From assembly GCA_015489595.1 (NCBI GenBank), contig WFZK01000002.1:1-51874 (forward strand): 51,874 nt of DNA, read 5' to 3'. The stretch comes from Candidatus Dojkabacteria bacterium (lineage in GTDB: Bacteria > Patescibacteriota > Dojkabacteria > GCA-002793355). Within the stretch, counting starts at the first letter, position 1. Every line of letters starts with the position of its first letter. A model generated the notes under the pieces. The model saw only the letters and a list, made by a program, of their open reading frames with translations, was not told the origin of the DNA and ran no database searches. The position numbers and the translations under genes are program-made. This document shows, one piece after another, positions 21,437 through 24,368 of this stretch.

Positions 21437-21490
21437 GGGGCTTAGGGGGGCAAAAATCTACCTTTCTCGATTTTTGCCCCCTAAGCCCTT
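21434..21490. repeat. Long palindrome P5 spanning two convergent stop codons
   Basis: Arms 21436-21458 and 21469-21490 with one bulged G and two terminal G-U pairs. Right arm CGATTTTTGCCCCCTAAGCCC. The stop of the Wzz-like gene (21434-21436, plus) and that of the PssE-like gene (21481-21483, minus) both lie in it, so the element fills the whole gap between the convergent genes. Confidence 0.9.
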
Positions 21491-21960
21491 ACCCAGGAGT
21501 CAAGGTATTTTATAAGCTTTGCTTTAGAATTCGACGGCTTTATGGGCTTAGGGCGCCTGCGTATAAGTTCTACCAGATCTTTGAACGTATAAGCCACCGG
21601 AAAATAAGGATTGTCGTTTTTAAGCGCGGACACTAACTCTAGTTGTTGATCATCTAGGTGCTCTTTTAGTTTCGCTTTCCTGGGAACTACTATAAGCGGT
21701 TTGTTTAGAGTGACCACGTCTAGTATGGTACCTACTCCTGCGTGAGCTATTATTAGGGAAGCTTTTTTTATTGTGTTTTTATAATCGCTGTAGCTTAGAT
21801 AGTCTACTGATTGAATTTTTGAGCTTTTAAATTTATATGATGTAGAGCCGGTCTGAACCAAAACTGCCTGCGCTGTGATTTTTAGCTTAATAAGCTTATC
21901 TATATATCGACACAACCTGTAGAAGGGGAATTTTTCAGTGCCTAAGGTTACAAATATCAT
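21481..21960 (-). CDS. PssE/Alg13-like glycosyltransferase catalytic subunit
   Basis: 159 residues: the C-terminal GT28 half of a glycosyltransferase. 'MIFVTLGTEKFPFYRL' is the classic Alg13/PssE start, and 'SLIIAHAGVGTILDVVTLNKPLIVVPR' the UDP-sugar binding helix and loop, with 'EHLDDQQLELVSAL' the H-x-x-x-Q motif. In known systems it works as a complex with the membrane subunit PssD/Alg14, which is encoded directly upstream with an ATGA overlap. It adds a sugar, typically GlcNAc or Glc/GlcA, to a lipid-linked acceptor. The stop codon lies in P5. Confidence 0.9.
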   Translation of the reverse strand: MIFVTLGTEKFPFYRLCRYIDKLIKLKITAQAVLVQTGSTSYKFKSSKIQSVDYLSYSDYKNTIKKASLIIAHAGVGTILDVVTLNKPLIVVPRKAKLKEHLDDQQLELVSALKNDNPYFPVAYTFKDLVELIRRRPKPIKPSNSKAKLIKYLDSWVRA

Positions 21961-22466
21961 AAGACTTTTCCAATGTATTTAGCTCTTTTGTATCGTTTAG
22001 CAAGACTTGGCCATTGGACTAGGAATTTGTCTGCAACATAGTAATTTAGCCAGCCACTGAAGGAGAGATTCTTGCTTCGTGTTAGAGACTCTATAAATAT
22101 GCTCCTTATTCTGCCTAGATACAATATTTTGGCCGTCCATATGGCACTTACTCCAGGAGCAGCGCCTGTTGAGATAACGTGGGTGAAGTTAAATTTAAGC
22201 ATAGAGTACCACAGGATTGGGACGTTTATAAAACTGTTGATGGCATTTTTCATATCTTTTATAGATCTAACATTTGTTGGGTGCTTAAGCCAAACTACTT
22301 TTTCGTTTTTTAAAAGGTCTAGAGTCTGGGGGGTTTTATACGTTGCCCATATGCGGGGGTATTTCGACCAAAATTTTTTAAGAGCAAACAGTTCAATAAT
22401 ATGTCCACCTGAGGAAGCAGCAAGAAGAAGCCGAGGGGTTTTAGATGTGTGCTTTTTAGTAAGCAT
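21957..22466 (-). CDS. PssD/Alg14-like glycosyltransferase membrane subunit
   Basis: 169 residues. 'RLLLAASSGGHIIELFAL' is the Alg14/PssD glycine motif, 'VISTGAAPGVSAIWTAKIL' the central segment and 'SIFIESLTRSKNLSFSG' the subunit interface region. It recruits the PssE catalytic partner (next gene, ATGA overlap) to the membrane. Start fixed by TGC-TAAAAT ending 6 nt before the ATG. The 93 bp between it and the peroxiredoxin gene hold only a half-palindrome (22509-22518). Confidence 0.9.
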   Translation of the reverse strand: MLTKKHTSKTPRLLLAASSGGHIIELFALKKFWSKYPRIWATYKTPQTLDLLKNEKVVWLKHPTNVRSIKDMKNAINSFINVPILWYSMLKFNFTHVISTGAAPGVSAIWTAKILYLGRIRSIFIESLTRSKNLSFSGWLNYYVADKFLVQWPSLAKRYKRAKYIGKVL

Positions 22467-22559: not shown

Positions 22560-23252
22560 TTATTTCTTTAGCACGCCTTTTAGGTACTTTTTGAGCTTCT
22601 TTTTTGCCTGATCCGAGTGGGGTTTTCCTATAAATACTGAGGTTGCATCTTTGCCACAGTGGGGAACAATGGCATCTTTACCTCCGGAGTGGCTACTGAG
22701 GAGTTCGGTCACGTCATAGACTTTATTCTCTATGATTATCCAGCAGTCTCTTTCGCTATTATGGGTTGCTACCTCATCCCTTGTATATTCTGGAAGCTCC
22801 TTGTGATTGTTTAAGGTTTTTACATATTCAAGTACTTCGGCTGCATGCCCTTGGGGCTTTACACTATGCCAGGATTTAATCATATCAAGCTCAGGGAGCT
22901 TTAGGAGAAAACTGCTTCGGTCTACTGTAAGGTAGGTTCTGCCCCCTACTGTCTTCTTTTTTAGTACATTGAAGGCTTTCAGGAGTTTAGCCTCAGGGTC
23001 GGACAGTAAGTGTATTGTAAGATTATGTTTCTCTATGAATTTTTTGTGTGATTCTTCAGAATTCTTCGAGACCCCTATGAGAAGTGTATCTAGTTTTTCA
23101 AATTGTTCCTTAAGCTGTGAAAATTCTTTAGCTTCAGTTGTGCACCCTGGAGTGTTGTCGCGAGGGTAAAAGTAAACCAGGATGTATTTATACCCTTTAG
23201 TATTTATGTTGCTTTGCCTGAGAAATTCTTTTAGGAGTTCGGTGTGAGACAT
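22560..23252 (-). CDS. Bcp/AhpC-type peroxiredoxin fused to a cytochrome b5 domain
   Basis: 230 residues, two domains. Residues 1 to about 148 are a PrxQ/Bcp-type peroxiredoxin: 'FYPRDNTPGCTTEAKEF' with peroxidatic Cys37, 'VSKNSEESHKKF' and 'LLSDPEAKLLKAFNV'. No Cys follows at +5, so no Bcp-type resolving Cys is present there. The usual N-terminal strand ('GxxAPDFxL') is missing. Residues about 155-228 are a cytochrome b5-like domain: 'CWIIIENKVYDVTELL', 'HSGG' at 188-191, 'GKDATSVF' and 'PHSDQA' with His212. The two His are 24 residues apart, as in classical b5, so heme binding is expected. Start fixed by TATAAT 6 nt upstream. No signal peptide. Confidence 0.9.
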   Translation of the reverse strand: MSHTELLKEFLRQSNINTKGYKYILVYFYPRDNTPGCTTEAKEFSQLKEQFEKLDTLLIGVSKNSEESHKKFIEKHNLTIHLLSDPEAKLLKAFNVLKKKTVGGRTYLTVDRSSFLLKLPELDMIKSWHSVKPQGHAAEVLEYVKTLNNHKELPEYTRDEVATHNSERDCWIIIENKVYDVTELLSSHSGGKDAIVPHCGKDATSVFIGKPHSDQAKKKLKKYLKGVLKK

Positions 23253-23258
23253 GTAAAG

Positions 23259-23264
23259 ATTATA
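23259..23264 (-). promoter_or_regulatory. -10 box for the peroxiredoxin-b5 gene
   Basis: TATAAT on the minus strand ends 6 nt before the ATG, supporting the short N-terminus of the protein. Confidence 0.65.
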
Positions 23265-23392
23265 CAGGGACGGTTGAGATTTTCCAATCCTAAATGGATG
23301 GTTTTTGTAGGGGGGGTATTCAATGGGATAAGGGAGGCGCAGTTTAAATAGGGCGTGGGCAGCTTTCTGTATAGATGGAGATATCTATGTAA

Positions 23393-23440
23393 GGGGTGCG
23401 GGGGAGAATTTGTTAAGTTTCAAATTCTCCCCCGCACCCC
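23393..23440. repeat. Long palindrome P6 before the dsbA-rpoB operon promoter
   Basis: Perfect 20-bp arms (23393-23412, 23421-23440), 8-nt centre. Outer arm GGGGTGCGGGGGAG; the inner core (AATTTG/CAAATT) differs from the other copies. It ends 4 bp before the -35 box at 23445. A half-element (tagggcgtggg, 23349-23359) lies just upstream. Confidence 0.88.
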
Positions 23441-23444
23441 CTAT

Positions 23445-23473
23445 TTGCATTTAAGAATTTCTTCTGATATACT
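23445..23473 (+). promoter_or_regulatory. Promoter of the dsbA-rpoBC-ribosomal protein operon
   Basis: TTGCAT (23445-23450), a 17-nt spacer, then TGA-TATACT (23468-23473). Leader of about 20 nt to the ATG at 23499. No other promoter is evident until 34898, so it may drive about 11 kb. Confidence 0.7.
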
Positions 23474-23498: not shown

Positions 23499-24368
23499 AT
23501 GAGTAGATCCAAAAATTCACAAACCCAGGCTGATTACATCGAAATAACAATTAGTCCGTGGGTAGCTTTTTCGGTAGTGGCTATTGTTGCCATTATTGTT
23601 TTTGGGGCGGTTTATATCTTTACTCATAAAGGTGGTAGCCAAAACCAGAATGGTGGATCTCAGGCCCAGGCTCAGCAAGCACAGAATAAAATAGTATTTC
23701 CTGCTAAGGTTGAGAATTCCCCTGTCTTGGGTAAGGATTCTGCACCTATTACGATTTTTGAGTTCAGTGATCTGGAGTGTCCATTTTGTAGAGCTTTCTA
23801 TTATGGAATGCCAAGCCGAGGAATAAAAGGAGCGTGGTCAGAGATAGAGAAGCTCATCAAAGAGGGTAAGGTTCGATATGTTCACAAGAATTTTGTTGCT
23901 GTGCCTAGCCATAATCCAGCTGCTAAGCTAGAAGCAAAGGCCACTTATTGTGTTTATAAACTTGGAGGGACTGATAGGTATTATGAGTATATTCATAAGG
24001 TGTTTGAAAAAGCTGGCAGGGTCGGAGCTGGGTACAATGGAGCGTATCAGTCAGGTGGAGAAGGGAAGCTTAAAGAGGAGTTGGCTAAATTGGCATCAAG
24101 TATGAAGATTGATAAGGATAAATTCTTAGCATGTATTAATTCTGCCGAGTCTGAAAAACTCTACAAGCAGGATGAGAAGTACATACAAAATGTCATTGGT
24201 CCCAAGGCCTCGCAGTATATGCAACAGGGCAAACTTGATGGTTTGGGCACTCCAATGTTTATAATCTGCAAGACTCCAAAAGATAATAATACCGAATGTC
24301 AGGGGGAGGTCTTGATGGGGGCTTATCCTTTTAGCTACTTTGAGAGAATTATCAATAAATTAAAATAA
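23499..24368 (+). CDS. Membrane-anchored DsbA-like thiol oxidoreductase
   Basis: 289 residues from ATG 23499; the frame is open further upstream but runs through palindrome P6 and the promoter. A polar N-terminus is followed by a TM (about 20-43), a Gln/Asn/Gly-rich linker (about 46-65), then a thioredoxin-fold domain of the DsbA_4/BdbD type: 'APITIFEFSDLECPFCRAF' with the CPFC active site, a helical insert, and 'LDGLGTPMFIIC' with the cis-Pro. The domain faces outward and would form or shuffle disulfides in secreted proteins. Two further Cys near the C-terminus (IICKTPKDNNTEC) may pair. It stands only 11 bp before rpoB on the same strand. Confidence 0.9.
   Translation: MSRSKNSQTQADYIEITISPWVAFSVVAIVAIIVFGAVYIFTHKGGSQNQNGGSQAQAQQAQNKIVFPAKVENSPVLGKDSAPITIFEFSDLECPFCRAFYYGMPSRGIKGAWSEIEKLIKEGKVRYVHKNFVAVPSHNPAAKLEAKATYCVYKLGGTDRYYEYIHKVFEKAGRVGAGYNGAYQSGGEGKLKEELAKLASSMKIDKDKFLACINSAESEKLYKQDEKYIQNVIGPKASQYMQQGKLDGLGTPMFIICKTPKDNNTECQGEVLMGAYPFSYFERIINKLK

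What the first reader, a model, noticed from the sequence alone, without database searches (positions are those of the whole stretch)
22560..23252. Peroxiredoxin fused to a cytochrome b5 domain
A Bcp-type peroxiredoxin (Cys37 in TPGCTTE) is joined to a cytochrome b5 fold whose two heme His (188 in HSGG and 212 in PHS) are 24 residues apart, as in classical b5, with the GKDATxxF block between. The fusion puts a heme electron carrier next to a thiol peroxidase. The peroxiredoxin also lacks the resolving Cys at +5 and the first N-terminal strand, so it may be reduced by a route other than thioredoxin, possibly via the heme. Fusions of this kind are not known to me.
Basis: partly seen in the sequence, partly recalled or inferred. 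Interest (0 to 1): 0.68.

Follow-up and report, generated by a model that had tools for sequence, protein, structure and literature searches.

The report
Peroxiredoxin–cytochrome b5 fusion, one genome
A tiny-genome bacterium carries a real but apparently unique gene in which an enzyme that destroys peroxides is joined to a small heme-binding electron carrier; the joining is new to us, but nothing found here shows that the heme part drives the enzyme.

Summary
Window 22560-23252 (-) is one open frame of 230 aa: a PrxQ/BCP peroxiredoxin (AhpC-TSA, E 1.3e-25, with P30/T34/C37/R112) followed by a cytochrome b5 domain (Cyt-b5, E 7.2e-22, with H188 and H212 24 apart). AlphaFold gives two confident domains (mean pLDDT 96) that match solved BCP (1.1 Å) and b5 (0.8 Å) structures. 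There is no frameshift, and the genome holds no second b5 or BCP piece, so a misassembly is unlikely. The fusion was found nowhere else: not in about 450 genomes of the same phylum, nor in a seed scan of 85,000 species genomes. Its nearest relative, in the same family, is an unfused peroxiredoxin that also lacks the resolving Cys and the first strand, so those features do not point to heme-driven reduction. The genome encodes thioredoxin and a TrxR-like reductase but no b5-reductase NAD domain and no ferrochelatase. Best reading: a lineage-specific fusion in which an ordinary 1-Cys peroxiredoxin is reduced by thioredoxin, with a tethered b5 whose heme would have to be scavenged. An electron relay from heme, or from the conserved b5 Cys pair, remains open but unsupported.

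The parts
22560..23252 (-). Peroxiredoxin-cytochrome b5 fusion gene, 230 aa, ATG to stop
22809..23252 (-). PrxQ/BCP-type peroxiredoxin domain (residues 1-148)
   Evidence: Pfam AhpC-TSA 1.3e-25; Foldseek to BCP 9a4d_B, rmsd 1.1 A
23142..23144 (-). Peroxidatic Cys37 of PxxxTxxC
   Evidence: Cys in all 121 homologues that have a letter at this column
22917..22919 (-). Active-site Arg112
   Evidence: invariant in 123 rows
22791..22808 (-). Short linker, residues 149-154 (NHKELP)
   Evidence: lies between the domain limits
22563..22790 (-). Cytochrome b5 domain (residues 155-230)
   Evidence: Pfam Cyt-b5 7.2e-22; Foldseek to house fly b5 2ibj, rmsd 0.8 A
22689..22691 (-). Heme ligand His188 (HSGG)
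   Evidence: invariant in 32 b5 rows
22617..22619 (-). Heme ligand His212 (KPHSD)
   Evidence: His in 26 of 32 b5 rows; spacing of 24
22743..22745 (-). Cys170, conserved with Cys199 in the b5 relatives
   Evidence: 31 of 32 rows; the one row without it also lacks Cys199
22656..22658 (-). Cys199, conserved with Cys170 in the b5 relatives
   Evidence: 31 of 32 rows; both also in 1cxy
23259..23287 (-). Promoter-like site TTGGAA-17-TATAAT, 6 nt before the ATG (possible leaderless mRNA)
   Evidence: 10 of 12 consensus bases

Best explanation
A lineage-specific, in-frame C-terminal domain fusion. The first part is a working 1-Cys PrxQ/BCP-type thiol peroxidase. C37 attacks peroxide, is oxidised to the sulfenic acid, and is reduced again by the cell's own thioredoxin and its thioredoxin-reductase-like flavoenzyme, as documented for other 1-Cys BCPs. 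The second part is a bis-His cytochrome b5 domain tethered by a linker of about six residues. It acts as a largely independent cytosolic heme/electron-carrier module, and the peroxidase beside it may protect its heme or whatever the b5 serves. Shown: one frame, two predicted intact folds, catalytic and heme-ligand residues, presence of Trx and a TrxR-like protein, an unfused sister Prx. Inferred: heme loading (no ferrochelatase found, so scavenged heme), Trx as reductant, and functional independence of the domains.
For: Both domains are far above the family cut-offs. AlphaFold mean pLDDT is 96, with matches to solved BCP and b5. The sister Prx in G006 has the same single-Cys, short-N-terminus form without b5, so this form of the enzyme exists as a stand-alone protein. 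Trx (TIGR01068 above cut-off), a TrxR-like reductase (TIGR01292, 324 against a cut-off of 343 bits) and a Prx6-like peroxiredoxin are in the genome. There is no NAD_binding_1 hit. 1-Cys BCPs are reduced by Trx or GSH/Grx (PMC8945050). In the comparable hybrid with published biochemistry, Thermotoga Prx-nitroreductase, the two domains do not exchange electrons (PMC8395237).
Against: No biochemistry is available. A genome this reduced keeping a fused pair could mean that the two parts cooperate. A b5 reductase of another fold, or a gene in the missing ~6% of the genome, would be overlooked.
Confidence: 0.5

Rival explanations
1. The b5 heme is the reductant of the peroxiredoxin: electrons reach heme one at a time and reduce the C37 sulfenic acid, replacing thioredoxin.
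For: Both centres sit in one chain with a short linker; the Prx has no resolving Cys.
Against: The unfused sister has the same Cys pattern. No b5-reductase NAD domain in the genome and Trx is present. Two-electron reduction of a sulfenic acid by a one-electron heme has no precedent known to me. The Thermotoga hybrid shows fusion without electron exchange.
Confidence: 0.12
2. The Cys170/Cys199 pair of the b5 domain acts as an intramolecular resolving dithiol for C37, so the fusion turns a 1-Cys enzyme into a 2-Cys-like one whose disulfide thioredoxin reduces.
For: The pair is nearly invariant in the b5 relatives and absent together in the single exception. Here it sits in a cytosolic context, since P0001 has no hydrophobic segment while most relatives have a signal or anchor.
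Against: The pair is conserved in secreted, unfused b5 proteins and in 1cxy, so its first role is structural or unrelated to Prx. Reach to C37 is untested.
Confidence: 0.15
3. The fusion is a neutral or recent accident in one lineage (or an assembly artefact) with no joint function.
For: Singleton; no other fused homologue. The b5 domain groups with b5s of other families, not with those of its own family.
Against: All catalytic and ligand residues are intact. One clean frame; no leftover b5 or BCP piece elsewhere in the genome. Base composition differs little between the two parts and the neighbours.
Confidence: 0.18

Closest known systems
PrxQ/BCP peroxiredoxins (1-Cys type, e.g. Burkholderia cenocepacia BCP; fold of Xanthomonas PrxQ 5iiz)
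   Same: Fold (rmsd about 1.1-1.6 A), PxxxTxxC, Arg, single Cys as in 1-Cys members
   Different: N-terminal strands replaced by a helix; C-terminal b5 domain
Cytochrome b5 (house fly 2ibj; prokaryotic b5-like 1cxy; secreted b5 proteins of related small genomes)
   Same: Fold (rmsd 0.8 A to 2ibj), two His 24 apart, GKDAT block; Cys pair shared with 1cxy and the relatives
   Different: No signal or anchor; fused to a peroxiredoxin; HSGG in place of HPGG
Thermotoga maritima peroxiredoxin-nitroreductase hybrid (4eo3)
   Same: BCP-type Prx at the N-terminus fused to a redox-cofactor domain at the C-terminus (Prx part 38% identical)
   Different: FMN nitroreductase instead of heme b5; its domains are reported not to exchange electrons (PMC8395237)
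Haemophilus peroxiredoxin-glutaredoxin hybrid (PGdx)
   Same: Peroxiredoxin fused to another redox domain; a glutathione-dependent peroxidase (PMC1361801)
   Different: Another Prx subfamily (own knowledge: Prx5); partner is a glutaredoxin, not a heme protein

Membership tests
Peroxiredoxin (AhpC/TSA), PrxQ/BCP subfamily | Thioredoxin-like fold with PxxxTxxC and active-site Arg | tested here: met
Peroxiredoxin (AhpC/TSA), PrxQ/BCP subfamily | Closest solved relatives are BCP/PrxQ | tested here: met
   phmmer 2.5e-30 to Xylella PrxQ/BCP 3ixr; top Foldseek hits all BCP/PrxQ
2-Cys PrxQ (thioredoxin-dependent PrxQ equivalog) | Resolving Cys at Cp+5 or in helix 3; NCBIfam cut-off | tested here: not met
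   K42 and I73 at the two sites; NF053650 102.7 against 260 and NF006960 88.4 against 140 bits
1-Cys BCP | Sulfenic acid reduced directly by Trx or Grx | not testable with these tools
   Trx and a TrxR-like protein are present; activity needs the bench
Cytochrome b5 | b5 fold with two axial His about 24 residues apart | tested here: met
Cytochrome b5 | Binds heme b | not testable with these tools
   Residues are present; no ferrochelatase in the genome
Prx-redox-domain hybrids (Thermotoga Prx-NR type) | N-terminal BCP Prx plus C-terminal FMN nitroreductase domain in one chain | tested here: not met
   Same layout, but the C-terminal domain is a cytochrome b5 and not a nitroreductase: alike in design, not a member

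The most novel reading that the evidence does not exclude
A peroxiredoxin whose sulfenic acid is reduced inside one chain by a cytochrome b5 domain, through its heme or its conserved Cys pair: a new reductant class for peroxiredoxins.
Probability: 0.15. Interest if true: 0.7.

Novelty: new variant of a known kind. Interest (0 to 1): 0.36.

Why it matters
If heme or b5 thiols reduce the peroxiredoxin, it would be a thiol peroxidase coupled to a heme carrier and would add a reductant to the few known. Even if the parts work independently, it is a natural chimera in a reduced genome that seems unable to make heme, and it raises the question of what b5 proteins do in such cells. As a singleton from a draft assembly its general weight is limited.

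Tried and rejected
Frameshift or misassembly: no second b5 or BCP copy in the genome, one clean frame, no remnants; read coverage could not be checked. 'Missing resolving Cys implies a heme route': rejected because the unfused sister shares it. Apparent long matches in G357 (6-185) and G373 (19-193) turned out to be ordinary Prx genes read through a stop. A viral source: viral-contig scan empty. Plasmids: 93 Prx hits, none covering 80% of the query. Literature searches for a Prx-b5 fusion found none. The first structure job used an alignment in which MAFFT had laid the b5 rows on the Prx part; it was repeated with a corrected alignment. Naming the organism failed: no tool gave kinship to a named genome.

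Full report
Observation. The reported frame is exact: 22560-23252 on the - strand, 230 aa, ATG to stop, with no in-frame upstream start. Pfam places AhpC-TSA at 19-113 (90.2 bits) and Cyt-b5 at 157-228 (77.7 bits), both far above cut-off. The Prx part has P30, T34, C37 and R112, each conserved throughout the aligned homologues, and no other Cys. The b5 part has H188 and H212, 24 apart, aligned with the ligands of solved b5s. A promoter-like TTGGAA-17-TATAAT ends 6 nt before the ATG, which supports the start and suggests a leaderless mRNA (inference).

Structure. With an alignment of Prx and b5 relatives taken from fetched loci, AlphaFold gives mean pLDDT 96 and pTM 0.74. Foldseek matches the first domain to BCP (9a4d_B, rmsd 1.1 Å) and the second to house fly b5 (2ibj, rmsd 0.8 Å over 79 columns). 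The usual N-terminal strands are replaced by a helix at residues 3-13. No coordinates were available, so the contact between the domains was not measured.

Distribution. The genome (G000, 825 kb, 93% complete) has one b5 domain and one further peroxiredoxin of the Prx6-like AhpC type. In the class (86 genomes), a phylum sample (380 genomes) and two further class draws (8 and 49 genomes), about 450 distinct genomes in all, Prx and b5 genes are common but were never seen joined. Of 128 Prx-like and 36 b5-like frames in the loci checked, only this gene has both (two loci cover the same gene). A seed scan of 84,980 species genomes returned 75 relatives, each matching only one part. That scan needs short exact peptide matches and would miss diverged fusions. 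The organism could not be named; the small genomes of its relatives and the only b5 match of the seed scan, in a Candidatus Microgenomates genome, suggest Patescibacteria (inference).

Origin of the parts. In the Prx tree the protein is sister to the unfused Prx of G006, same family (100/95). That 154-aa protein also has a single Cys and a short N-terminus. In the b5 tree the domain falls among b5s of other families in the phylum (91/87, open fork). The b5-like proteins of its own family branch apart (95/92), though branches are long. The simplest account is a family Prx that received a b5 domain from the wider b5 pool at its C-terminus (inference). Most b5 relatives have a hydrophobic N-terminal segment and so look secreted or anchored; this protein has none (highest 19-residue hydropathy 0.5).

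Mechanism. The genome has thioredoxin (TIGR01068 above cut-off) and a TrxR-like flavoprotein (TIGR01292 324 against 343 bits, just below cut-off). No NAD_binding_1 domain of b5-reductase type was found, and no ferrochelatase (1 weak hit in 86 class genomes, none here). 1-Cys BCPs are known to be reduced by Trx or GSH/Grx (PMC8945050). The nearest design precedent, Thermotoga Prx-nitroreductase, has domains that work without exchanging electrons (PMC8395237). I therefore favour Trx-dependent peroxidase turnover with a tethered, largely independent b5 (0.5). A Cys170/Cys199 relay (0.15) and heme-driven reduction (0.12) remain open. The Cys pair is nearly invariant among the b5 relatives and is absent together in the one exception. 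It is also present in 1cxy, which points to a disulfide older than this fusion (inference).

Verdict. A real, so far unique domain combination, for which no report was found in the papers searched; the 'heme instead of thioredoxin' argument is weakened by the unfused sister. New variant of a known kind (Prx fused to another redox domain), moderate interest.

Noticed in passing
window 23387-23450: Near-perfect hairpin (stem over 20 bp, loop 8 nt, about -45 kcal/mol) between the fusion gene and the divergent DsbA-like gene; its arm occurs nowhere else in the window or the fetched loci. Role unknown.
   Followed up: partly
window 23499-24368 (+): Divergent neighbour is a probably membrane-anchored Thioredoxin_4 (DsbA-like) protein with a CPFC motif, next to rpoB/rpoC.
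   Followed up: partly
b5 relatives, e.g. L143-L160: Secreted or anchored b5 proteins are widespread in this phylum and carry a nearly invariant Cys pair (31 of 32), although the window's class lacks ferrochelatase almost entirely.
   Followed up: partly
window 21481-22466 (-): Overlapping Alg13-like (Glyco_tran_28_C) and Alg14-like genes just downstream of the fusion gene.
   Followed up: no
L152 (G311:C3:39500-43500): In another genome of the phylum, a BCP Prx, a rubrerythrin-like protein and a secreted b5 lie within 3 kb as separate genes.
   Followed up: no
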